The notes beneath the pieces are model-generated. The model was not told where the DNA came from. It did no database searches and saw only the letters and a program-made list of their open reading frames with translations. A DNA stretch of 64,000 nt from Candidatus Thiothrix anitrata (GTDB taxonomy: Bacteria; Pseudomonadota; Gammaproteobacteria; Thiotrichales; Thiotrichaceae), in assembly GCF_017901155.1 (NCBI RefSeq), contig NZ_CP072800.1, positions 2,755,283-2,819,282 of the forward strand, read 5' to 3'. The position numbers and the translations under genes were made by a program. Shown piece after piece: positions 43,354 through 55,204 of this stretch (position 1 is its first letter; each line of letters opens with the position of its first letter).

Positions 43354-44252
43354 GTGATAAATTACAAACATCTCTATTATTTTCGTGAAGTCGCAACTGC
43401 GGGCAGTATTGTGCGTGCCTGCGAAAGCCTAAATCTGACCCCGCAAACCATCAGTGGGCAATTGCAATTACTGGAAGATTCCCTCGGTGTCAAACTGTTT
43501 CGCAAACAAGGGCGTAACCTAGAACTCACCGATGCCGGGAACATTGCCCGACGTTATGCCGACGAAATCTTCCAACTGGGCAACGCACTGGAGCAAGCAT
43601 TACAAAGCTCGCTGCAAGCACGCCTGTTCCGGGTGGGTATCGTCGATGTTGTACCAAAAACCATTGCCTACAAATTGCTGGAACCAGCGATGCAACTTCA
43701 TCCACAAATCCACATTGTTTGCAACGAAGGCTCTATGCAAGATTTACTAGGGGATCTCGCTATGCACCGCATTGAGCTGGTTATTGCCGATAAACCACTA
43801 CCCAACACCATTCCGATCAAAGGCTTTACTCATCGTTTGGGTTTCAGTGGCCTTAGCTTTTTTGCACATACCTCAGTGAAACAACGCTTGCAGGGAGAGT
43901 TTCCGCAATGCCTGCACCACGCGCCGCTGCTTATCCCCAGCGAAGGTTCCTCCGCACGTAATGGTCTCATGGACTGGTTTCACCAACAGAAAGTGCAACC
44001 GAATATTATTGGAGAGTTTGATGACAGTGCCTTGATGCGAGCGTTTGGCTTTGGGGAACGGGTATTTTTGTCGCGCCTTCGGTACAAGAAGCCACCTTCA
44101 CCCAAGAACCCGACATTCACTGCATTGGTCAGGCTGACGGTGTGACAGAACAGTTTTTTGCGATTTCAGTGGAACGGCGAATTAGCCATCCTGCGATTTT
44201 GGCGATTACCAAGAATGCGCAGGACTGGCTGCACCCTAAAACAAATCAATAA
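43354..44252 (+). pseudogene. nhaR: NhaR-type LysR regulator, frameshifted
   Basis: The N-terminal 230 residues are a LysR regulator very like E. coli NhaR: INYKHLYYFREVATAGSI, LNLTPQTISGQLQLLE, VKLFRKQGRNLEL, and LIPSEGSS and GEFDDSALMRAFG in the effector domain. The main frame then ends early at 44145. Adding one G to GGGG at 44053-44056 restores GGTGIFVAPSVQEATF and a normal C-terminus to the TAA at 44250-44252, about 299 residues (NhaR is 301). The start is GTG 43354. NhaR activates the Na+/H+ antiporter gene nhaA, which is not in the window. It is divergent from htpG and its restored stop abuts the terB stop. One-base error or real loss cannot be told apart here. Confidence 0.85.
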
Positions 44253-44708
44253 TTACACGCCAAAATCTTCCGGTGGAAGATTCAAATCACGACACATTTC
44301 GCGCACGATTTGCTTTTCTTTGTCATCAAAATCACCGTCAGCACTGCCGATCGCACAACAAACCCGTACCATTAAACGAGCAGCATCGGGTTTGCTACGC
44401 AGCTTACCGATCATTTTCAGGGCTTCGGCTTTACCGATTTCATTGTCAAATTCAAAGTTTTCGGTGACTTTGTTGAAAACAGCAATCACGTCTTTGGTTT
44501 CAAAGACTTTCAACTCATCCGATTGCTGGATGAATTTCATCATCTTCTGCTTTTCGGATGAATCAATACTGCCATCCGCCGCTGCGACCAAACCACAACC
44601 GGCAACACAGGCTTCCATGAATTCGCGGTTTTTGAATTTACCGACTTCAGTCGCCAATTTAGCGCGAGCTTCCCCCGCTTTTTGTTTCAAAGTATCAAAA
44701 AATGACAT
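44253..44708 (-). CDS. terB: Tellurite resistance protein TerB
   Basis: A 151-residue cytoplasmic TerB-fold protein, the same length as plasmid TerB. Two acidic metal-binding loops, VAAADGSIDSSEKQ and IGSADGDFDDKEKQI, are the family hallmark. TerB interacts with TerC at the inner membrane in ter stress complexes. ATG 44708 (MSFFDTLKQKAG) is chosen over the TTG at 44714; AAGGAGA lies upstream. Last gene of the minus-strand ter operon, 26 bases after the DUF475/TerC gene. Confidence 0.94.
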   Translation of the reverse strand: MSFFDTLKQKAGEARAKLATEVGKFKNREFMEACVAGCGLVAAADGSIDSSEKQKMMKFIQQSDELKVFETKDVIAVFNKVTENFEFDNEIGKAEALKMIGKLRSKPDAARLMVRVCCAIGSADGDFDDKEKQIVREMCRDLNLPPEDFGV

Positions 44709-44734
44709 AAACAATCTCCTTAGTAATCATAGCA

Positions 44735-45769
44735 TTATGCTAATAATTTCTTTTTGTGATTCAACGAAGAAACAATCGACAATGCAATAAATGCTATACC
44801 GATTAAACCTGTAATAATTTCTGGCGTATGGAAGTTAATGCTAAACAGCATAATCACTGCCAATGCACCAATCGCGTAATGTGCGCCGTGTTCCAAGAAA
44901 ATATATTCATCTAACGTGCCTTTATGCACTAAATAAACGGTCATGGAACGTACAAAGATGGCACCGATTGCCAAACCCAACATAATAATAACCACGTCAT
45001 TAGTAATCGCAAACGCACCGATGACACCATCAAATGAGAAAGAAGCATCTAACACTTCCAAATACAGAAAACCCGCTAAACCGTTACGTTTTACCGTAGT
45101 GACCACCGCATCGCCTTCTGCCTCATTTTCAAAAAACACATCCAAGCTACTTACTGCAATGTAAAGCACCACGCCAGCCAAACCGGCAATCAGAATGGTC
45201 AAACGCTTTTCATCAGAGATCGGCATAAACTCTTGCAGCGCAAACAGCACCACTAACGCGATCAACACACTAATGACTTCGAGCTTGCCTAAAGCTCCCA
45301 TTTTTTCTTCAAAAGCACCGAGCCAATGCACTTCCTTTTCATGGTCAAACATAAAGCTCAGAAATACCAGCAGCAAAAACATGCCACCGAAAGCCGCAAT
45401 GCCCGCATGACTTTCATGTAAATGACGTGAATATTCATCAGGATTATTCAGTGCCATATCAATGACTTCAAAACTACCTAGCCCGGTTGCCACTGCCACT
45501 ATCACAATAGGGAAAACTAAACGCATCCCGAATACCGCAATAAAAATTCCCACAGTCAAAAACAATTGTTGCCACTTCTCATCCATTTCTTTGAGGACAG
45601 ATGCATTAACAACCGCATTATCAAATGATAGGCTGATTTCCAGAATCCCTAAGACTAGTATCAAGAAAATGGCGGTCAGAATTCCCATTGAACTGGATGC
45701 GCCCCACCAAATGGCTAGAGCAACACATACGGCACTGAACCATAATGAAAATTTAAAATGTGCGAGCAT
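44735..45769 (-). CDS. terC: TerC-like integral membrane protein (DUF475)
   Basis: A 344-residue protein with eight or nine transmembrane helices. Intramembrane acidic motifs ILEISLSFDNAVVNASVL and LDASFSFDGVIGAFAITND match the TerC superfamily; overall it looks like the DUF475 branch and not the classic plasmid TerC. Such proteins are thought to bind or move metal ions and anchor TerB/TerD complexes; YkoY/MntP-type Mn2+ export is known for TerC relatives. It sits between the terD genes and terB. The symbol is given for position and superfamily. Confidence 0.85.
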   Translation of the reverse strand: MLAHFKFSLWFSAVCVALAIWWGASSSMGILTAIFLILVLGILEISLSFDNAVVNASVLKEMDEKWQQLFLTVGIFIAVFGMRLVFPIVIVAVATGLGSFEVIDMALNNPDEYSRHLHESHAGIAAFGGMFLLLVFLSFMFDHEKEVHWLGAFEEKMGALGKLEVISVLIALVVLFALQEFMPISDEKRLTILIAGLAGVVLYIAVSSLDVFFENEAEGDAVVTTVKRNGLAGFLYLEVLDASFSFDGVIGAFAITNDVVIIMLGLAIGAIFVRSMTVYLVHKGTLDEYIFLEHGAHYAIGALAVIMLFSINFHTPEIITGLIGIAFIALSIVSSLNHKKKLLA

Positions 45770-45800
45770 GAAAGTTTATAGCTCCGGTTAATACATACGA

Positions 45801-45825
45801 AAACAGGCATCTTATTAAAGATGCC
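45801..45825 (-). terminator. Weak hairpin between terD and terC
   Basis: GGCATCTT (45806-45813) and AAGATGCC (45818-45825) form an 8-bp stem with a 4-base loop; on the minus strand it is followed by TGTTTT. It could partly terminate transcription and lower expression of the downstream terC-terB pair relative to terD. Confidence 0.5.
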
Positions 45826-45876
45826 CGTCGTAATGATGGCTGCATGTAACTACTTAATAATCACAGGCGACAGCCT

Positions 45877-46455
45877 TTATCCCAAGTTAACACCCATTGA
45901 GGCAGCCATCGGACCTAAACCACCTGCAAAACCTTGACCGACGGCTTTGAATTTCCACTCAGCATTGTGACGGTAAATTTCACCAAACAGCATGGCTGTT
46001 TCGACGCTTGCATCTTCCGACAGGTCATAACGTGCAATTTCTTTGCCATCAGCCGCATTCACCAAACGGATGTAAGCATTGCTGACCTGACCAAAGTTTT
46101 GCTTGCGTGCTTCAGCATCATGGATAGTGACGGAGAATACCAGCTTCTTCGCAGTTTCCGCCAAACCTGCCAAATTTACGTTGACTTGTTCGTCATCGCC
46201 ATCACCAGCGCCAGTCTTGTTATCACCCATGTGCTCAACATTGCCACACGCTGATTTTTTGTTGTTATAGAAAATGAAGGAATCGTCAGACAACACTTTG
46301 CCGTTTTCACCCAGCATAAACACCGACGCATCCAAGTCGAAATCTGCACCATCGGTAGCACGGGTATCCCAACCCAAACCCACAGTAACAGCAGCTAAAC
46401 CCGGTGCTTCTTTAGTTAAAGAAACGTTACCACCTTTTTGTAAACTAACAGCCAT
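45877..46455 (-). CDS. terD: TerD/TerE-family calcium-binding stress protein (copy 2)
   Basis: A 192-residue TerD-domain protein starting [19 protein letters not shown]. Calcium-site motifs are intact: [14 protein letters not shown] and the acidic loop [13 protein letters not shown]; the signature [17 protein letters not shown] is present. TerD proteins bind Ca2+ and support tellurite, phage and colicin resistance in the ter complex. It is 37 bases downstream of a paralogue of the same length, with which it is clearly homologous. Which is TerD and which TerE cannot be decided by eye. Confidence 0.93.
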
Positions 46456-46492
46456 TGTAAAACTCCATTATATTAATCGTTGAGTAAAAAAC

Positions 46493-47071
46493 TTAACCAA
46501 TTTGAATGCCAAATTGATCACACATTGCTTTTAAACCACCGGCGTAACCCTGTCCCACTGCGCGGAACTTCCACTCACTATTGTGGCGGTATAGCTCCCC
46601 AAACACCATGGCGGTTTCGGTGGAGTAATCTTCTGCCAAATCGTAACGCACAATTTCTGTGCCGCTTAGGTCATTGACCACGCGAATAAAGGCATTCGCT
46701 ACCTGCCCGAAATTCTGCCGCCGTGCATCCGCATCGTGAATAGTCACGGTAAAGGCAATTTTTTCGATTTCCATCGGGACTTTGCTCAAATCCACTTTCA
46801 TGGATTCATCATCGCCGTCCCCCTGTCCGGTACGGTTATCGCCGGTATGCTCCACTGAACCATCGGTGGATTTCAATTGGTTATAGAAAATGAAATCCGC
46901 ATCACCACGTACTTTGCCTGTCGCGGTTAGCAAAAATGCACTGGCATCCAAGTCAAATGCCGAACCGTCAGTGGTGCGTTCATCCCAGCCCAAACCAACC
47001 AGAATCTTGGTTAAACTGGGATCGGTTTTACTTAAGGAAAGGTTGCCACCTTTTTGTAAACTTAATGCCAT
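46493..47071 (-). CDS. terE: TerD/TerE-family calcium-binding stress protein (copy 1)
   Basis: A 192-residue TerD-domain protein ([19 protein letters not shown]) with [29 protein letters not shown] and [17 protein letters not shown], so both calcium loops look functional. It lies 44 bases downstream of terA and 37 bases upstream of its paralogue. The pair probably arose by tandem duplication. The TerD versus TerE naming is tentative. Confidence 0.92.
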
Positions 47072-47115
47072 GATTTATCCTCCTTGGTGAATATTTTTAA
47101 TATAATATCAATACA

Positions 47116-48333
47116 CTATTTAGAACCTGCCCGCCAATTTAAACCCCAATGGTAGGCTTGATCCATTTCCTGATGCCCACGGAAATAACGCACTTCACGG
47201 TTGACTTGCAACGCGCCATTGACGTTTTCCAAGAGAACAACGGCGCACATGCCTAATGAATTACCACCTTCAGTTAAACGAATTTCCACAGGCGGTTCAT
47301 TCGGCACGTAAATTGTGACCACACCATCGGTTTTTGCCCAGTTCGGCGCACCTTCGTAGATAAAAGCATACACCAGTATCCGCTTGAAAGTTTGCCACTG
47401 CTGCCCATTGATGTGCAGCCATTCGCCTTCCGAAATCGCGCCCGTGCGATCATCGCCTTTGAGTTCGATATACGGGTCACTGCGGAACGAACCAAAGCGG
47501 TTGCCGAGGGCTTGAATCGCACTGATAGTGCCGTCACGCTGTTCGTACAAGCAACCGACATCCAAATCCACCTGAGCATTACCACCGCCGCCGAACATAC
47601 CACCCAAAAAACCACCGCTTTTGGCGGTGGGTTGGTTATCACGATTCCAATTCAGATTGATGCGAATTTCGCCGAAGCCATCGCTTTTCTTTTCCAGACT
47701 AACGCGAGGCTTGCTTTTATCCAGCGTCACTTTGCTCAAAGAAATAGGTTTTCTAGCGGGCGCAGCTGGTGACGTTACTGGCGGGGCTGCTGTTGGTGTG
47801 GGGTCACTGATTTCAACCCCGAAATGCTCTGCCAATGGTTTTAAGCCACCCGCAAAACCTTGCCCAACAGCGCGGAATTTCCACTGCCCTTGGCGCAAGT
47901 ATAATTCGCCCAAAATCAATGCCGATTCCACCATACCTTTAGCAGGCAAGGTGGCTTGCAATACTGCCTGCCCCGCCGCGTTTTTCACGGTCACTTGCAA
48001 ACTGGTGAATGCGCCGAAATTGGTGCGATTTTCGTGAATGGTCGCGGTGAACGCCACCTTTTCTGTGCCTGCCAACACAGTCGGCAAATCCACGCTGAAT
48101 TCAGCACGACCGGCACTGTTACCAACAAACGCCACACTGCCATTGCCGGGGCGCGGTTGCCCGTAAAACACCATGTCATCGTCACCGCGTACTTTACCGT
48201 TAGCGGTTAGGACAAAGGCGGAAATATCCACCTCTGCTCCACTGACTTGAGCAGGCGACAGCAGGACTTCAACGTGTAATTTTTCACGCGGTACGGGGCA
48301 ATTCGCCCCAGCCACCAGTTGGGTCACTGACAT
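47116..48333 (-). CDS. terA: TerA-family protein with N-terminal TerD domain
   Basis: A 405-residue protein made of an N-terminal TerD-like domain (about 1-178, ending [20 protein letters not shown]), a Pro/Ala-rich linker (about 180-198) and a C-terminal TerA domain (VSLEKKSDGFGEIRINLNW, VDLDVGCLYEQRDG, KGDDRTGAISEGEWLHIN). In the N-terminal domain the calcium loops are reduced (AEVDISAF; GNSAGRAEFSVDL instead of an acidic GDGDDE), while the C-terminal domain keeps acidic loops. E. coli TerA is 385 residues. AGGAG precedes the ATG; 10 bases after terZ. Confidence 0.92.
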   Translation of the reverse strand: MSVTQLVAGANCPVPREKLHVEVLLSPAQVSGAEVDISAFVLTANGKVRGDDDMVFYGQPRPGNGSVAFVGNSAGRAEFSVDLPTVLAGTEKVAFTATIHENRTNFGAFTSLQVTVKNAAGQAVLQATLPAKGMVESALILGELYLRQGQWKFRAVGQGFAGGLKPLAEHFGVEISDPTPTAAPPVTSPAAPARKPISLSKVTLDKSKPRVSLEKKSDGFGEIRINLNWNRDNQPTAKSGGFLGGMFGGGGNAQVDLDVGCLYEQRDGTISAIQALGNRFGSFRSDPYIELKGDDRTGAISEGEWLHINGQQWQTFKRILVYAFIYEGAPNWAKTDGVVTIYVPNEPPVEIRLTEGGNSLGMCAVVLLENVNGALQVNREVRYFRGHQEMDQAYHWGLNWRAGSK

Positions 48334-48343
48334 CGCGTTACTC

Positions 48344-48943
48344 CTAGAGCGCGGCTAATACCGCAGGCATCATGTCGTTAGCAACAGCACCCGCTGTGGG
48401 TGTGCCGACTGCTTTCATTTCCCAACCTGCGCCGTTACGGCTGACAACTGCCATGACTACGCCCGTGTGTGCGCCTTTGTCAGACAAGTTGAATTTCGCC
48501 ATTTCGGTGTTGTTGCTGTCATCCACTAAACGGCAAAATGCGCCTGCAACCTCGTTAAAGGTTTGCCCACGGAATGAACAAACCGTGAAAGCCAAATGTG
48601 CTACATTTCTCGGCAAACGGGTTAAATCAACGAAAATCACTTCATCGTCGCCGTCACCTTCACCTGTCAGGTTATCACCGGAATGACTGATTGAACCGTC
48701 ACGGCTTTGCAGTTGGCGGAACCACACCACATCCAGCAGGTTTTTTTGTGCATCCAGCAATAAGCAGGAAGCGTCCAAGTCGATGTCTGCCGCAGCGCCA
48801 CCGCCGAACATGCTACCGAAGAAACCGCTTTTTTTCGGTGCTTCTGCCGGATCCCAGCCCAAGCCCATGCGTACTTTACTCAAGCCACCGCCGCCGGTTT
48901 TTTCCAGCGAAATGCGTTGACCTTTGCTTAAACTTACAGCCAT
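48344..48943 (-). CDS. terZ: TerZ/TerD-family protein
   Basis: A 199-residue TerD-domain protein starting MAVSLSKGQRISLEKTGGG. It contains a Gly-rich insertion (FFGSMFGGGAAADIDLDAS) and the acidic calcium loop LTGEGDGDDEVIFVDL, the form found in TerZ. ATG 48943 is chosen over 48955, since GGAG then sits about 7 bases upstream. First of the four TerD-type genes of the operon, downstream of the ATP-grasp gene by 91 bases. Role: Ca2+-binding component of the ter stress complex. Confidence 0.92.
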   Translation of the reverse strand: MAVSLSKGQRISLEKTGGGGLSKVRMGLGWDPAEAPKKSGFFGSMFGGGAAADIDLDASCLLLDAQKNLLDVVWFRQLQSRDGSISHSGDNLTGEGDGDDEVIFVDLTRLPRNVAHLAFTVCSFRGQTFNEVAGAFCRLVDDSNNTEMAKFNLSDKGAHTGVVMAVVSRNGAGWEMKAVGTPTAGAVANDMMPAVLAAL

Positions 48944-49034
48944 GAGAATCTCCATCCTTTTGTATTATCAAGTCACCACATCTTAGAGAGTCGCCCAAGT
49001 GCAAGCAACACTCACCCAGAATTGTCCGGTTATT

Positions 49035-50060
49035 TCAGCTTAACGGTTGCAATACCACGGGGGTACTGACTTCGCTAATCCGCAAGCCGTAACGCAGCGG
49101 CGCAATGTTCAGGGTTTCCCCTTGCAAGCTTTGCAGGAAAACCTCTGCCAAATTCACGCCCGCCAGACACGCCATGCCAAAGCCACCAGAAGGACGCGGG
49201 TTGATTTCCAGCAAACGCGGCTCGCCTGCCGCATTCGCTTTGAACTGAATATTGAACAAACCATTCAAGCCATAATGCACGGTCAAACGTTCGACCATGC
49301 CTTGAATGTCAGCGTTATTGTCGATTTCCTGCCCGTATCCTGCTTGCGGATACTTTTTGCGTTGAATCGCACACAGCAATTGCCCATCACGTCCGGCACA
49401 ATCCACGCTCCATTCCGCACCGGGCAAATGTTCCATCACCAGCAATTCGGGGAATGTCGGCGTATTTTCCATCCCTGCACGTAATTCTACCAGCGGGATT
49501 TCGTATTCCACGCCCTTGAGCAAATGCGTAATGCTGTCACGCTGTGTATCCAGAATCCGAAAACCCAAGCCAAACACCGAGATAGCCGGTTTCACACACA
49601 ATGCCGTATGCTGCTGCGCCAACACGGCTACCGCATGATCAAAACCGGCAACATCTTGCACACGGATACACGCCATTGCCAGCGCCACGGTATGAGGCAG
49701 GTGTTGATAAAATTTACCTTTATGATCCAAATGCTTAAGCGTTTCCGGTGAAGCGACAGCGATCACGTGTGTACCCACAGCAGCAAAGGCGGCACGTTGT
49801 TTCCCAATAAGACGGGCTTCTTTGGCTGCCCAGAAATGACTGATTCGGCGTTCCTGACAAAAGCTCAAACACCAATCCACGTAAGCCGCGCCCTGTAAAC
49901 CGGTAGGTTCAAGATAAGCTTCGTCAGCGGCGAGAAAGGCGGAAGCAGCCGGATTGTTATGCGTGTAAATCACGCGCAAACCACCACCAATACGCGCTTG
50001 GCGCAGGTTGTAGAACACGGAACTAATGCTGGAAAATGTCTTATTGAACCAAATGCGCAT
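49035..50060 (-). CDS. ATP-grasp enzyme of the ter module
   Basis: A 341-residue ATP-grasp carboxylate-amine/thiol ligase-like protein. The nucleotide/metal-binding end is seen in LLEINPRPSGGFGMA (E-x-N-x-R), with FPELLVMEHLPGAEWSVDC and LFNIQFKANAAGEPR before it. It fits the ter-associated ATP-grasp family (ATPgrasp_Ter), predicted to ligate a group to a nucleoside-like product made by the neighbouring PRTases and lyase. It heads the minus-strand ter operon and is divergent from the TerD-protease; its promoter should lie in 50061-50195. Substrate unknown. Confidence 0.88.
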   Translation of the reverse strand: MRIWFNKTFSSISSVFYNLRQARIGGGLRVIYTHNNPAASAFLAADEAYLEPTGLQGAAYVDWCLSFCQERRISHFWAAKEARLIGKQRAAFAAVGTHVIAVASPETLKHLDHKGKFYQHLPHTVALAMACIRVQDVAGFDHAVAVLAQQHTALCVKPAISVFGLGFRILDTQRDSITHLLKGVEYEIPLVELRAGMENTPTFPELLVMEHLPGAEWSVDCAGRDGQLLCAIQRKKYPQAGYGQEIDNNADIQGMVERLTVHYGLNGLFNIQFKANAAGEPRLLEINPRPSGGFGMACLAGVNLAEVFLQSLQGETLNIAPLRYGLRISEVSTPVVLQPLS

Positions 50061-50195
50061 GGTATGCCCTGTCTAAAAATTTTAATAATGATGGCAGATG
50101 CCAGTATGCCCGATCTGCGGCAATAATTTCAGGCATTTTTGCCAAAATTCTTGCTATCATGCGGTGCATAACCATACAGCTCGGTAACAATAATT

Positions 50196-51329
50196 ATGAT
50201 GAACTTACCCGTAGGAGCAAACCTGCCACTGAACGGCAAGCGTTGGACAGTCGCCATCACGTTTCCGCACGACATCCGCCACGATTTGGGGCTGGCGGTG
50301 TTGCCTGTCAATGAGGCAAAACAATTAGTTACTGCCCCGCAATTAGCCCATGCCAATGCCACCGAATGGGCAAGTGCAAAACTGAATGACGCAGGCACGA
50401 GTTACGCCCTGACACTGGATACCAACGTGTTATCCAATCCCAACATTACCCGCTTGTGCCTGGTGTTGTACCGCTACGGCGCACGCGGGCCGGTGAATGT
50501 CGGTAACACCGTAACCGTGCAAATGGATGATGCCTTTAGCCATCAGATTCTTTTGGGGGAAATGCAGGCATCTGCACTGATTGTTGCCGAGTTTTACCAG
50601 CGAGCAGGGCAATGGAAAGTACGCGCCTTAGCCGAAACCTCCGCCTACGGGCTTGCCGCTTTGGGGCGCAGAATGGGCATGGAGGTGAATGAAAGTTCAC
50701 CCTTCAACACCCCGAACCACCCCGAACGTCAGCCCGGTAATTGGACAGGCACAGCGTTTCTGGTCGCCCCCAATGTGTTCATGACCAACGCACATGTGGC
50801 AGACGGTGCAAGCCGTATCCGCTTGAGTTCGCTGCAAGGCAATCTCGATGCCGAACCGATTATCAGCGATAGCACCAATGACTTGGCATTATTGCGGGTA
50901 GCTACACCCAGCCATTTACAACCGCTCCCGTTTCGCAACAGCGGCGTAGGTTTGGCGCAAAGCATCACCACGCTAGGCTATCCGCTGGCAGGTTTGATGG
51001 GCAGCGGCATTCAAGTCACGCAAGGCGTTATTTCCGGCTTGTTTGGGGCGCACAATGACATTCGCCTGCTGCAATTCACCGCACCGATCCAGCCCGGTTC
51101 CAGCGGCAGCCCCTTGCTGGATGAAACTGGCGCGGTGTTGGGCGTGGTATCGTCCACCTTTACCCATGCGCAGAACATGAATTTTGCTATCCGTCACAGT
51201 TTGGCGATTGCCTTAATGGAAGCGGCTAATATCCAATACAACCTACAAAGCAGTGCGCAAACGCTGTCAGCCGCGCAAATGGTGACGCAAACCCAAAACG
51301 CCATCTGGCGTGTAGAATGCGCCAGCTAA
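50196..51329 (+). CDS. TerD-like domain fused to trypsin-like serine protease
   Basis: A 377-residue two-domain protein. Residues 1-165 resemble a TerD domain (start LPVGANLPLNGKRWTVAI, ending EFYQRAGQWKVRALAETSAYG), but both calcium loops are lost: DIRHDLGLAVL replaces [11 protein letters not shown] and no GDGDDE loop is present. Residues 182-345 are a complete trypsin/DegP-like protease: His200 in MTNAHVADG, Asp229 in STNDLALLRV and Ser303 in QPGSSGSPLLD, with GYPLAG and AVLGVVS. No signal peptide is visible, so it should be cytoplasmic. It starts the plus-strand half of the ter locus, 21 bases before PRTase_2-TRSP. A role in cleaving or sensing within the TerD complex is inference. Confidence 0.88.
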   Translation: MMNLPVGANLPLNGKRWTVAITFPHDIRHDLGLAVLPVNEAKQLVTAPQLAHANATEWASAKLNDAGTSYALTLDTNVLSNPNITRLCLVLYRYGARGPVNVGNTVTVQMDDAFSHQILLGEMQASALIVAEFYQRAGQWKVRALAETSAYGLAALGRRMGMEVNESSPFNTPNHPERQPGNWTGTAFLVAPNVFMTNAHVADGASRIRLSSLQGNLDAEPIISDSTNDLALLRVATPSHLQPLPFRNSGVGLAQSITTLGYPLAGLMGSGIQVTQGVISGLFGAHNDIRLLQFTAPIQPGSSGSPLLDETGAVLGVVSSTFTHAQNMNFAIRHSLAIALMEAANIQYNLQSSAQTLSAAQMVTQTQNAIWRVECAS

Positions 51330-51350
51330 ATAACTACCAATGGATTGTTC

Positions 51351-52448
51351 ATGCAAATCAATGTCGCCCTCGAACAGGGCACGCTCAACCTGACTATCGA
51401 ATCCGGCACACACTCGCCGGATGAACTCTTCGGCTTTGCGCAACGCCGCAACCCGAAACGCGCTTTCCTGTTTGTTTCCAAAGTGTTGGGCAGGCACATT
51501 CCGGTATCGCCAGCGGTCATGCGCAATGCCACGGATACGCTTGCCGCGCAAATCCCGCCGACTTACCGGGCCGGTCGTGGTCATCGGCATGGCAGAAACC
51601 GCGATTGCATTGGGGGCAGGGGTGCAACAAGCTCTCAGCCGCAGCCGTGACGACACGCTTTACCTTTGCACCACGCGCCACCCGTTGGACTTGCCGATTC
51701 TGGTCGAATTCCGCGAAGAACACAGCCATGCCACCCAGCAAGTGCTGCATCTGCCGCAACACGCCGCCGATGTCGAGTTGCTGCGCACCGCACGTAGCTT
51801 AGCGTTGGTCGATGACGAAGCCTCCACCGGCAAAACCTTCGCCAATCTGCTGGAAGCGTTGCAAGGTGCAGGATTGGATCAGTTTGAACACATTGTTGCT
51901 GCCACTCTCACCGACTGGTCGGGCGGTGCTGCCGCCGAACGTTTAGGCAAACGCGCTGTTGCCGTATCACTGCTGTCAGGGCGTTGGGATTGGCAAGCCA
52001 ACGACGCGCCGCCGCCGGAAATGCCGCAAGTCGATGTTTTAGGCACGGGCGAATGGCACGCTAATCCTGCCAATGATCGGGACGGTTGGGGTGCGGGAAC
52101 ATGGGGTTTCTTTCTTCAACAACATCAACGTCGCCCCCGGCGAACGCATCCTAGTCTCGGCACGGGCGAATTCGTCTGGCCACCTTTCTTACTGGCGGAA
52201 TATCTGGAACAGCAAGGCGCAACCGTGCATTTCAGCGCGACCACGCGTTCACCGATTGCCTTGGGTCACAGCATCCAGCACCGCTATTGTTTTCACGACA
52301 ATTACGGGCAAGGCATCCCAACTTCCTCTACAACGTCGTGCCTGAACATTACGACCGCATCCTATTGTGCAGCGAACCGCCCGCGCATTTGCTGGATAAA
52401 GCCTTACTCAACGCCTTGAAACCAACCTGTCTGGAGTTTTACCCGTGA
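51351..52448 (+). pseudogene. Ter-associated phosphoribosyltransferase with TRSP domain, several frameshifts
   Basis: Pieces in three frames spell one PRTase_2-TRSP protein of about 365 residues. The N-terminal part is in one frame to about 51555, then GPVVVIGMAETAIALGAGVQ with the PRPP loop LALVDDEASTGKTF. The frame changes near 52105, giving FFNNINVAPGERILV, again near 52155 to LGTGEFVWPPFLLAEYLEQQ and TTRSPIALGHSI (the TRSP signature), and again near 52320 to NFLYNVVPEHYDRILL and the TGA at 52446-52448. Two shifts need one missing base each; two need one extra or two missing. It is predicted to make a glycosidic bond in a nucleoside-like metabolite. Its end overlaps the HAD start (GTGA). 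The overlap and intact motifs argue for sequence errors over decay. Confidence 0.82.
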
Positions 52449-53184
52449 AACCTTTATTACTCACCGATTTGGATGACACGCTGTTCCAGACTGCCCGCAA
52501 AATGCCCGCAGATACGGATAAAATTCCCGCTGCACAAGGTTTGAATGGCGACACCATCAGCTTTATGCACCCTTGGCAACACGATTTTATTCACTGGGCA
52601 TTGGCGTGTATGCAGGTGATTCCGGTCACGGCGCGTGGTATTGAATCGTTTCAACGGGTACACCTACCGTTTCAGCACCAAGCCGTGTGTGTGCATGGCG
52701 CGGCAATTCTGACCCGCAAGGCACGCTGGATGCAGACTGGCATTCACACATGCAACAACAGCTTGCGCCTTACCAAACCCGCCTACACGAAATGTTGGCG
52801 AGTGCGTTACAAACAGGTGAAACGCTGGGGTTATCTTTACGCGGCTGGCTGGAATGGGTAGAAAAAGACACGACCGCAGCGTATTTGGTAGTGAAAAGCA
52901 ATGCATCACGCGCCGAAGACTTGGAACAGTTACTGCATACCTTACGCGAAACCCTCGATTTAACAGGCTTCTACATCCACATGAATGGTAATAATCTGGC
53001 ACTGTTGCCAAATCCGGTAAACAAACGCGCTGCTGCCGTTGAAATCTTGCGGCGACACACCGCTACGCATGGGCGTGTGCCAGTATTTGGCATGGGCGAT
53101 AGCCTGTCAGATTTGGGATTCATGCGCTTATGCGACTTTGCGGCATTCCCGCCGCACAGCCAATTGGGCGGGAAACTGCCATGA
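52445..53184 (+). pseudogene. HAD-superfamily phosphatase of the ter module, one frameshift
   Basis: A HAD hydrolase of about 246 residues once repaired. Motif I is LLLTDLDDTLFQT (nucleophile Asp), and motif IV is FGMGDSLSDLGFMRL. The frame breaks at 52711: adding one G (CTGACC to CTGGACC) joins VCVHGAAIL to DPQGTLDADWHSHMQQQ and runs to the TGA at 53182-53184. The start is GTG 52445, overlapping the PRTase_2 stop, and its end overlaps the next start (ATGA), so the operon is tightly coupled. It resembles the sucrose-phosphatase-like branch; predicted to dephosphorylate an intermediate of the ter metabolite. Confidence 0.82.
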
Positions 53185-54254
53185 GTGCGCCGCAAGGTTT
53201 TCACGGCTCTTATCCGGCGGATGATGTGACGTTTTTGCTGCGCCTGACCGAAATGGAAGCCACGCCCGTCGAAGAAAAAGAACGCCTGATTCAAAGCGGG
53301 CAACGCCATTATTCCAAAATGATTAGCACCGAATCCGCGCCGTCGGTGGAACATCAAGCCTTGTATCAGCAAGCACTTGCGGATGGCTTGCACCGTTTGG
53401 CAAGCGAGGTACAGCAATTGGCGATGGCGTTACAACAGCGACGCCCTGCTCGCCCGATTGTGTTGGTTAGCTTTGTGCGTGCCGGTGTGCCACTGGGCGT
53501 ATTGCTGGTACGGGCATTGCGTGAGTTGGGGGTGGACAGTGTGCATTACGGCATCAGCATTATTCGCGACAAAGGCATTGATCAAGCGGCACTGGACTGG
53601 ATTGAGCAACGCCATGCGTTTGCCGATATTGTGTGGGTTGACGGCTGGGTAGGCAAAGGGGCAATCCACACCCAATTGCAAGCCTCGTTAGGGGAACGTT
53701 ACCCCGCTCAGGAAATCCCGTTTGCGGTATTGGCAGACCCCACTGGGAAGGCGTGGCTGTCGGCATCGGGGGATGATTGGTTGATTCCGTTTGGGATTCT
53801 GGGGGCAACGGTGTCGGGCTTGGTATCGCGATCTATCCTAACCCGTGATGGTGGCTGGCACGCTTGCGTGAGTTACCAGCATTTAACTGCCCACGATGTC
53901 AGCCAAGCGTTCGCCGATGAAGTGGACAGTTACCGTCGTGCGTTACCTGCCCTGCCCGTATTGGAATGGCTGCCCGCGCAACGTCAGGCGTTACAAACGG
54001 CATCCCACACCACGATTCAACGCCTCGTTGATACTTATCAGATCAGCAATATTAATCGCTTGAAACCGGGGATTGCGGAAGCCACCCGTGCGGTCATGCG
54101 GCGCGTGCCAGAACACATTATGGTGCAGCGCCTCGATGACCCGAATATCCGCTTATTACGCCATCTTGCCGAATCGCGGGGGATTCCCCTGCAAGCGGTT
54201 GGGGATGGGCTTGCGCCATACCGTGCGATAACCATAATCAAGAAGACCACATGA
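53181..54254 (+). CDS. Ter-associated phosphoribosyltransferase with PELOTA-like domain
   Basis: A 357-residue two-domain protein. Residues about 1-255 are the PRTase_1 domain (formerly labelled StiP cysteine protease): LVSFVRAGVPLGVLLVRALR, HYGISIIRDKGID and the phosphate-loop variant VWVDGWVGKGAI. Residues about 275-357 are the PELOTA/L7Ae-like domain (LKPGIAEATRAVMRRVPEHI, LAESRGIPLQAV), a fold that usually binds RNA. ATG 53181 is used because it overlaps the HAD stop; the frame is open back to 53130. Its end overlaps the lyase start by four bases. Predicted role: second phosphoribosyl transfer step of the ter module. Confidence 0.87.
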   Translation: MSAPQGFHGSYPADDVTFLLRLTEMEATPVEEKERLIQSGQRHYSKMISTESAPSVEHQALYQQALADGLHRLASEVQQLAMALQQRRPARPIVLVSFVRAGVPLGVLLVRALRELGVDSVHYGISIIRDKGIDQAALDWIEQRHAFADIVWVDGWVGKGAIHTQLQASLGERYPAQEIPFAVLADPTGKAWLSASGDDWLIPFGILGATVSGLVSRSILTRDGGWHACVSYQHLTAHDVSQAFADEVDSYRRALPALPVLEWLPAQRQALQTASHTTIQRLVDTYQISNINRLKPGIAEATRAVMRRVPEHIMVQRLDDPNIRLLRHLAESRGIPLQAVGDGLAPYRAITIIKKTT

Positions 54255-55204
54255 CCACACGAATTTCCCCTTATCAGTTAGGCGCAACCTTATACATGCC
54301 AGCAACACGCCCAGATTTGTTGGAGGTGATTTTACGGCAGAAAATCCCCGATCTGCGCTCGATGGTGATTTGCCTCGAAGACGCGGTACGTGAGGATGAA
54401 GTCGCCGAAAGCTTAAGCAATCTGCAACACTGTTTGCACACATTACGCGGGCAAGAACGTAGCGTGCCGCTGGTGTTTATTCGTCCTCGTCATCCGAAGA
54501 TGGCGCATAAGCTATTGGCGATGCAAGGCATTGAGTGCATTGACGGCTTTGTGCTGCCCAAGTTTGATAACCACTCATTTGCGGCATGGTATGCGGTGGT
54601 GCAATCCGCACCCGCGCATTTGCTGTTTATGCCCACGCTGGAAACGGCGCAAGTATTGGATGCGCTGGCAGTGCGCGAATTGTGCGAACGTTTGCAAGAT
54701 GACGGGATTAAGTCGCGGATATTAGCGTTACGGATTGGCGGCAACGATTTGCTGTCGTGCTTGCGCTTGCGCACTCATCATGCCCACACGTTGTACGATG
54801 GCCCGTTGGGGTATGTGGTGGCGATGCTGGTGACGCATTTTGTTCCGGCTGGTTTTCACCTAACTGCGCCCGTATTTGAATATTTTCAGGATCACACCAT
54901 CTTGCAAGACGAGTTTCAACGCGATTTGCTGCACGGCTTGGTAGGTAAAACCGTGATTCACCCTAACCAGATTGCGGTGATCCATCAGGCGCTGAAAGTG
55001 GATAGCCGTGATTACGAAGCGGCGCTGCGGATTCTGGATGATGCCATGCCTGCGGTATTCCAGTTTGAAGGCGCGATGTGCGAACCGGCGACGCATCACC
55101 ATTGGGCAGTGCAAGTGATGGAACGTGCCAAGCACTTTGGGTGTCATTTGCACGCGGTGGCGGTGGATGAGGGGATGGAGAAAGAGTGTGCGGCGTTGTA
55201 TTAA
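54251..55204 (+). CDS. C-C bond lyase (HpcH/citrate-lyase-like TIM barrel) of the ter module
   Basis: A 317-residue TIM-barrel aldolase/lyase like CitE/HpcH. It has LGATLYMPATRPDLLEVIL at the start, VICLEDAVREDEV (metal-binding Glu/Asp after strand 2), PLVFIRPRHP, DGFVLPKFD, LFMPTLETAQVLDAL, ALRIGGNDLLSCL and GLVGKTVIHPNQIAVI. This fits the C-C bond lyase family found only in ter biosynthetic clusters. It closes the plus-strand operon, overlapping the PRTase_1-PELOTA gene by four bases. Predicted to form or break a carbon-carbon bond on the sugar or base of the metabolite; chemistry unknown. Confidence 0.87.
   Translation: MTTRISPYQLGATLYMPATRPDLLEVILRQKIPDLRSMVICLEDAVREDEVAESLSNLQHCLHTLRGQERSVPLVFIRPRHPKMAHKLLAMQGIECIDGFVLPKFDNHSFAAWYAVVQSAPAHLLFMPTLETAQVLDALAVRELCERLQDDGIKSRILALRIGGNDLLSCLRLRTHHAHTLYDGPLGYVVAMLVTHFVPAGFHLTAPVFEYFQDHTILQDEFQRDLLHGLVGKTVIHPNQIAVIHQALKVDSRDYEAALRILDDAMPAVFQFEGAMCEPATHHHWAVQVMERAKHFGCHLHAVAVDEGMEKECAALY

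What the first reader, a model, noticed from the sequence alone, without database searches (positions are those of the whole stretch)
44253..55204. Complete ter stress locus with divergent metabolite-synthesis operon
Seven ter-type genes on the minus strand (ATP-grasp, terZ, terA, two terD/E, DUF475/TerC, terB) face five genes on the plus strand (TerD-protease, PRTase_2-TRSP, HAD, PRTase_1-PELOTA, C-C bond lyase). The last four overlap start-to-stop, so their products probably act in a fixed ratio. The enzyme set matches the nucleoside-like metabolite module predicted for ter systems by comparative genomics; the product is chemically unknown. This is the best candidate in the window for an uncharacterised system, possibly linked to phage or metal stress.
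Basis: partly seen in the sequence, partly recalled or inferred. Interest (0 to 1): 0.8.

Follow-up and report, generated by a model that had tools for sequence, protein, structure and literature searches.

The report
Known ter stress locus, partly broken
This is a standard bacterial tellurite/stress-resistance (ter) gene cluster with its usual neighbouring enzyme genes, also found in related sulfur bacteria and on many plasmids; two of its enzyme genes are interrupted in this genome sequence, most likely by sequencing errors, and what the enzymes make is still unknown.

Summary
The ter locus is real. Pfam confirms TerB, DUF475/TerC, four TerD proteins, ATPgrasp_Ter, a trypsin-like protease, PRTase_2 and TRSP in pieces, StiP+PELOTA_1 and C-C_Bond_Lyase; the three start-stop overlaps exist. 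But PRTase_2-TRSP and HAD are not open genes here. Relatives have them open: PRTase_2-TRSP in 9 of 9 Thiothrix loci, HAD in 8 of 9. The window has eight unique single-base losses, all in genes, and the broken pieces show no clear relaxed selection, so sequence error is likelier than decay. TerF is absent. The layout is ordinary: StiP relatives lie on 2568 plasmid records, and Pseudomonas and Klebsiella plasmids carry the same enzymes beside ter genes. A nucleoside-like product was already predicted; it is unknown. Added here: StiP, named a cysteine protease, looks PRTase-like with a weakly L7Ae-like tail; PRTase_2-HAD-StiP is the core and can occur without ter genes; HAD-StiP appears to have been exchanged as one block twice in Thiothrix.

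The parts
44253..44714 (-). TerB
   Evidence: PF05099, 88.6 bits
44735..45769 (-). DUF475/TerC-type membrane protein
   Evidence: PF04332 388 bits, PF03741 69 bits
45877..46455 (-). TerD/TerE protein 1
   Evidence: PF02342 283 bits
46493..47071 (-). TerD/TerE protein 2
   Evidence: PF02342 296 bits; no separate second copy was found in 1 of 10 Thiothrix loci (L021)
47116..48333 (-). TerA-like (TerD domain, 405 aa)
   Evidence: PF02342 136 bits; TerA assignment by position and length, cf. annotated plasmid loci
48344..48955 (-). TerZ-like (TerD domain)
   Evidence: PF02342 166 bits; TerZ assignment by position
49035..50060 (-). ATPgrasp_Ter enzyme
   Evidence: PF15632 140 bits
50061..50195 (.). 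divergent intergenic region between the two operons; a CTCGGTAACAATAAT stretch just before the protease start is identical in 8 of 8 Thiothrix loci aligned
   Evidence: alignment of 8 of 10 loci, the two with a longer gap (L020, L021) left out
50196..51329 (+). trypsin-like protease with a weak TerD-like N-terminal part
   Evidence: PF13365 87.6 bits; TerD 22.1 bits, below cut-off
51345..52448 (+). PRTase_2-TRSP gene, interrupted (pieces in different frames)
   Evidence: PRTase_2 and TRSP hits in pieces; split matches against an intact relative
52445..53184 (+). HAD-family phosphatase gene, interrupted once
   Evidence: two pieces against the intact 250-aa relative; the intact relative resembles HAD-IIB phosphatases weakly
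53181..54254 (+). StiP (PRTase-like) + PELOTA_1 (L7Ae-like) protein
   Evidence: PF11202 288 bits, PF15608 90 bits; profile comparison; open frame
54251..55204 (+). C-C_Bond_Lyase (CitE/acyl-CoA lyase relative)
   Evidence: PF15617 343 bits; solved acyl-CoA lyase beta chains at E 3e-8

Best explanation
A chromosomal ter stress-response locus of a Thiothrix species with its usual enzyme module. Shown: the gene families, the layout, its conservation in 10 Thiothrix genomes and on plasmids, and the co-occurrence of TRSP, StiP and TerD. Inferred: TerB, DUF475/TerC and the TerD proteins form a metal/Ca-linked complex at the membrane. PRTase_2-TRSP uses PRPP to build a phosphoribosylated compound; HAD removes a phosphate; StiP, a second PRTase-like enzyme with an L7Ae-like tail, acts with HAD as a matched pair. 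The CitE-like lyase and the ATP-grasp ligase shape the other half of the molecule. The small product is the signal or effector that switches or supports the ter complex under envelope, metal or phage stress. In this genome sequence PRTase_2-TRSP and HAD are interrupted, most likely by local sequence errors, so the organism probably has a working copy.
For: Families. Same layout in 10 of 10 lyase-positive Thiothrix genomes. ATP-grasp, PRTase, HAD-size protein, StiP and lyase in this order beside ter genes on Pseudomonas, Klebsiella and Salmonella plasmids. TRSP and StiP in the same 9 of 299 genomes, 8 of 9 with TerD. PRPP-loop residues D155, D156, E157, T160, G161, T163 invariant in 14 of 14 PRTase_2 proteins; PRTase_2 matches short classical PRTases (hhalign 84.9%) and PRPP synthetases (63.2%). 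StiP N-part matches PRTase_2 (32-45% by direction and length used) and short classical PRTases (38.6%), against at most 0.8% for 8 control families. Errors rather than decay: the 8 window-unique single-base losses are all in genes, 6 of 8 at a run of three or more G or C, against 1, 0, 1 and 0 such losses in L021-L024; dN/dS of PRTase_2-TRSP is 0.122-0.183 in 7 window pairs and 0.080-0.167 in 21 intact pairs, of HAD 0.042-0.105 and 0.049-0.136.
Against: None of the listings and passages seen reports an experiment on the enzyme module, and terZ-F alone gives tellurite resistance to E. coli MG1655 (PMC8115787 passage), so the module is not needed for that phenotype. StiP did not match the PRPP-synthetase profile (0.0%), its match to classical PRTases covers only 48 columns and stops before the PRPP loop, no solved PRTase was found from its sequence, and its loop (VDGWVGKG) lacks the second acid of the usual motif (motif recalled). 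Against errors: seven of the eight losses cluster in 1.2 kb of two neighbouring genes, which gene decay would also give; two of eight are not at a G/C run; PRTase_2-TRSP dN/dS reaches slightly above the intact range in one pair (0.183); and a 200-kb sample of the genome shows only slightly shorter ORFs than a relative (mean 304 against 327 aa), so errors are not general.
Confidence: 0.6

Rival explanations
1. The interruptions are true: the enzyme operon is decaying in this species while the ter operon stays intact.
For: Seven single-base losses lie in two adjacent genes and none in the other genes of the two operons; the eighth is in the LysR gene. There is no large general shortening of ORFs in the sampled genome.
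Against: dN/dS of the broken pieces is within or close to the range of intact pairs; no in-frame stop was flagged in the pieces; the losses are all single bases and 6 of 8 lie at a G/C run; the downstream StiP and lyase are open and conserved.
Confidence: 0.25
2. StiP is a cysteine protease, as Pfam and the plasmid annotations say, and the operon processes proteins (with the trypsin-like protease) rather than making a nucleoside-like compound.
For: The Pfam name and the annotation on plasmid records; one cysteine column is kept in 11 of 12 StiP proteins; a serine protease is encoded beside it.
Against: The cysteine is missing in L051; profile comparison favours PRTase (44.6% and 38.6%) over a papain-type (Peptidase_C1) profile (0.1%). 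Other cysteine-protease folds were not tested.
Confidence: 0.1
3. The enzymes act on RNA: the PELOTA/L7Ae-like tail brings StiP to a structured RNA, where the pathway installs, exchanges or removes a base or ribose, so the 'metabolite' is an RNA modification.
For: PELOTA_1 in 12 of 12 StiP proteins; 34 of the 35 solved-structure matches of the StiP profile at E up to 1 are by name L7Ae/eL8, S12 or Snu13-type proteins and the other is called only 'Ribonucloprotein' (best E 0.0082), with the E-x-T-R/K stretch kept.
Against: The similarity is weak; HAD and the CitE-like lyase are families best known for small molecules (recalled); no RNA target was looked for or is known to me.
Confidence: 0.15

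Closest known systems
ter locus of Klebsiella pneumoniae plasmids (p426-Vir, NZ_CP080310; described for NTUH-K2044 in PMC8115787, passages read)
   Same: Divergent ter operon and enzyme operon with ATP-grasp, PRTase, HAD-size protein, StiP and CitE-like lyase in the same order.
   Different: In Klebsiella the ATP-grasp leads the enzyme operon; here it sits on the ter strand. Klebsiella also has TerF, TerY-C and vWA proteins and lacks the trypsin-like gene next to the core.
ter locus of Pseudomonas plasmid pWTJH12-KPC (NZ_CP064404)
   Same: ATP-grasp, trypsin-like protease, PRTase, HAD-size protein, StiP, CitE-like lyase, TerZ-, TerA-, TerB-, TerC- and TerD-type genes.
   Different: These all on one strand, with an extra HAD gene after the lyase, and TerF-type genes nearby.
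Acinetobacter jumbo phage vB_AbaM_ME3 Ter system (PMC7824862, passages read)
   Same: PRTase_2-TRSP, HAD and StiP relatives beside TerC- and TerD-type genes.
   Different: 28-34% identity in the core; no C-C lyase or ATP-grasp detected in the 19-kb stretch.
ter loci of Thiothrix caldifontis, lacustris, fructosivorans and Ca. T. singaporensis (L006-L009)
   Same: Same divergent layout.
   Different: PRTase_2-TRSP open in all four, HAD open in three (damaged in L006); TerF between protease and PRTase_2 in three of the four.

Membership tests
ter stress-response locus | TerD-domain proteins with TerB and a TerC-type membrane protein in one cluster | tested here: met
   Pfam
ter stress-response locus | TerF (TerD + vWA-TerF-like), an accessory member | tested here: not met
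   None of the five TerD matches of the whole genome is TerF; present in 4 of 10 Thiothrix loci. Accessory because insertions in terF are said to have had no effect on the phage, oxidative-stress and colicin phenotypes (PMC12054061 passage citing a 1995 paper).
ter-linked enzyme module (predicted nucleoside-like metabolite) | ATPgrasp_Ter, PRTase_2+TRSP, HAD, StiP+PELOTA_1 and C-C_Bond_Lyase next to ter genes | tested here: met
   PRTase_2-TRSP and HAD present only as interrupted genes in this sequence
ter-linked enzyme module (predicted nucleoside-like metabolite) | Makes a nucleoside-like compound | not testable with these tools
   No experiment seen in the listings and passages
phosphoribosyltransferase (PRTase_2 domain) | PRPP loop and PRTase profile similarity | tested here: met
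   Invariant loop residues in 14 of 14; hhalign 84.9% to short classical PRTases
phosphoribosyltransferase (StiP domain) | PRPP loop and PRTase profile similarity | tested here: inconclusive
   38.6-44.6% against at most 0.8% in 8 controls, but 0.0% to the PRPP-synthetase set and an incomplete loop motif
cysteine protease (StiP as named by Pfam) | Invariant catalytic cysteine; protease profile similarity | tested here: inconclusive
   Best Cys column 11 of 12; 0.1% to a papain-type profile. Only one protease clan was compared, and the Pfam name itself says protease.
known anti-phage defence system (PADLOC-DB) | Match of the enzyme or ter proteins to a defence model | tested here: not met
   10 proteins scanned (8 of the window, PRTase_2-TRSP and HAD from L007; terZ and one TerD not scanned): the trypsin-like protein matches RT-Protease_XI models (E 1.5e-16, over its protease part) and LmuA (0.0084), TerB matches BnzA at E 0.01, the other eight nothing

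The most novel reading that the evidence does not exclude
The ter enzyme module ends on RNA: StiP is a PRTase-derived enzyme that its L7Ae-like tail brings to a structured RNA, and HAD-StiP is a matched, exchangeable pair that sets which base or which RNA is changed during stress; the core can do this without ter proteins, as in Rhizobium.
Probability: 0.1. Interest if true: 0.7.

Novelty: new member of a known kind. Interest (0 to 1): 0.3.

Why it matters
The locus itself is an ordinary ter system. Relatives of its StiP gene are on 2568 plasmid records, mostly of Klebsiella, Escherichia, Enterobacter and Salmonella, yet no product is named in the papers seen here. This work narrows the question: the minimal core is three genes, HAD and StiP behave as one unit in recombination, and the common 'cysteine protease' label on StiP is probably wrong, which sets the first assays to run (PRPP turnover and RNA binding).

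Tried and rejected
Structure prediction of StiP and PRTase_2-TRSP: tool switched off; profile comparison was used instead. Solved-structure search gave no PRTase hit for StiP and only E 0.22 or worse for PRTase_2. PADLOC gave no defence label beyond the protease domain. The idea that HAD-StiP exchange is a general rule: among six plasmid loci no pair shows the sharp contrast. The idea that a Na/Ca exchanger in place of TerC is a common variant: TRSP was found in only 2 of 11 genomes of that genus.

Rows and sequences left out before counts: of 33 PRTase loci read, 16 passed the length and motif filter (8 short, 8 long), and 5 of 6 Peptidase_C1 loci were used, 8 of 10 intergenic regions were aligned; one search used 4 of the 9 relatives (L021-L024), six (L007, L020-L024), seven (L006 and L008 left out); the bases beside each interruption were left out; the HMMs were built partly from four of the eight loci they then scored (L047, L048, L051, L052).
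Full report
Where it is. The window lies in a 3.55-Mb single-contig genome whose StiP protein is 74-85% identical to those of four named Thiothrix genomes, so it is taken to be a Thiothrix species. The ter locus lies between an htpG gene with an NhaR-like LysR gene on one side and an SGNH/acyltransferase pair and metH on the other.

Observation. The three start-stop overlaps are in the sequence and in 4 of 4 relatives looked at. PRTase_2-TRSP changes frame near 51.56, 52.10, 52.16 and 52.32 kb, and HAD near 52.71 kb (tblastn alone shows the first, fourth and fifth).

Are the breaks real? In an alignment of 43354-55204 with four relatives (L021-L024) the window has 8 unique single-base losses, all inside genes, 7 of them between 51553 and 52711 and one in the LysR gene; L021, L022, L023 and L024 have 1, 0, 1 and 0. 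Six of the eight lie at a run of three or more G or C. The window also has 4 unique single-base gains, all between genes. PRTase_2-TRSP is open in 9 of 9 Thiothrix relatives and HAD in 8 of 9; the exception, L006, is another metagenome assembly that also has a run-together StiP-lyase frame. The pieces carry no clear sign of relaxed selection: dN/dS for PRTase_2-TRSP is 0.122-0.183 in the seven window pairs and 0.080-0.167 in the 21 intact pairs; for HAD 0.042-0.105 and 0.049-0.136. Against errors: the losses cluster, and ORF lengths in ten 20-kb samples of the genome are only a little lower than in ten samples of a relative (mean 304 against 327 aa). I judge local sequence error about three times as likely as decay.

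How general is it? The lyase family occurs in 10 of 16 Thiothrix genomes, and 10 of 10 of these carry the same divergent layout (in L008 the stretch held ends before terB). Variation: TerF in 4 of 10 loci (L006, L007, L009, L020; identified in L007 by Pfam); one TerD gene fewer in L021; a longer gap between the operons in L020 and L021. In 299 genomes sampled from the phylum, TRSP occurs in 9 and StiP (over cut-off) in the same 9; 8 of the 9 have TerD, which occurs in 39 of 299 overall. The core is PRTase_2-TRSP, HAD and StiP: at the eight other loci PRTase_2 and StiP lie side by side or with only HAD between them, and HAD was detected in 7 of 8. The lyase lies next to the core in 5 of 9 genomes including this one. 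On plasmids, StiP relatives are in 2568 of 72,556 records, mostly Klebsiella, Escherichia, Enterobacter and Salmonella.

StiP. Pfam and plasmid annotations call it a cysteine protease. In 12 diverse relatives the loop VDGW[TV]GKG is nearly invariant, while the best cysteine column is filled in 11 of 12. Profile comparison of the N-terminal part gives 44.6% to PRTase_2 over 116 columns and 38.6% to eight short classical PRTases over 48 columns, but 0.0% to PRPP synthetases; eight control profiles, a papain-type protease among them, give at most 0.8% (E-values there are for one comparison each; whole-length StiP gives 35.5% to PRTase_2). So a PRTase-like fold is favoured, not proven. The C-terminal part is PELOTA_1 in 12 of 12 and resembles L7Ae, S12 and Snu13 proteins weakly (best E 0.0082).

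A matched pair. Between L009 and L020 the loci are 90-100% identical in DNA from terB to the lyase, except HAD and StiP at 73-76%; at the protein level ATP-grasp 100%, protease 99%, lyase 98%, but HAD 80% and StiP 77%. In the window against L022 the adjoining genes (protease, PRTase_2-TRSP, lyase) are 87-95% and HAD-StiP 76-80%, though DUF475 (77%), the two TerD genes (82-83%) and the N-terminal half of the ATP-grasp (70%) also differ. So HAD and StiP appear to have been replaced together at least twice, with edges near the gene ends at the resolution used (bins of about 320-550 bases). This suggests, but does not show, that they work as a fitted pair. Six plasmid loci do not show the pattern.

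Mechanism. I commit to the known prediction: a PRPP-derived small molecule made by the core and tailored by the lyase and the ATP-grasp, acting with a membrane-linked ter complex under stress. Supporting context, from passages only: the Ter system is described as PRTase/HAD signal synthesis plus TerB/TerD sensing plus TerC (PMC7824862); the Klebsiella locus has two opposed operons, and terZ-F alone suffices for tellurite resistance in E. coli MG1655 (PMC8115787); [quoted passage not shown] None of the listings or the passages names the product or an assay of these enzymes; no paper was read in full, most subscription papers are not in that library, and the 2012 prediction paper could not be read.

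Verdict. An ordinary, widespread system with a new host record and a damaged or mis-sequenced enzyme operon: a new member of a known kind.

Noticed in passing
L080 10753-14009; L047 7643-10899: Rhizobium etli plasmid p42d and the sampled genome G268 carry PRTase_2-TRSP, StiP and HAD with no ter gene detected in the 19-25 kb stretches; G268 is not among the 39 genomes with a TerD match. Its StiP is at 99% or more in 33 plasmid records, of which the 12 listed are Rhizobium.
   Followed up: partly
L048 10580-11731; L049 4512-5660: In two draft genomes of one genus a sodium/calcium exchanger (PF01699) stands between StiP and TerB in a ter operon, and TerC (PF03741) was not found in those genomes. 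This fits a calcium link of the TerD proteins (recalled).
   Followed up: partly
window 52445-54254; L009 9321-11125 against L020 4336-6155: The HAD-StiP block differs sharply between otherwise nearly identical Thiothrix loci, as if exchanged as a unit.
   Followed up: yes
window 43354-44145: NhaR-like LysR gene beside terB is cut short by a frame change near 44.05 kb; it is 301 aa in three relatives (L022-L024).
   Followed up: partly
L055 3786-15322: A 65-kb contig in the viral collection (IMGVR_UViG_2660238583_000003) carries ATP-grasp, protease, core, lyase and ter genes in a row; whether it is truly viral was not checked.
   Followed up: no
window 49548-50060: The N-terminal half of the ATP-grasp is only 69-71% identical in DNA to L021, L022 and L024 while its other half is 82-90%, as if the substrate-side half had been exchanged.
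   Followed up: no
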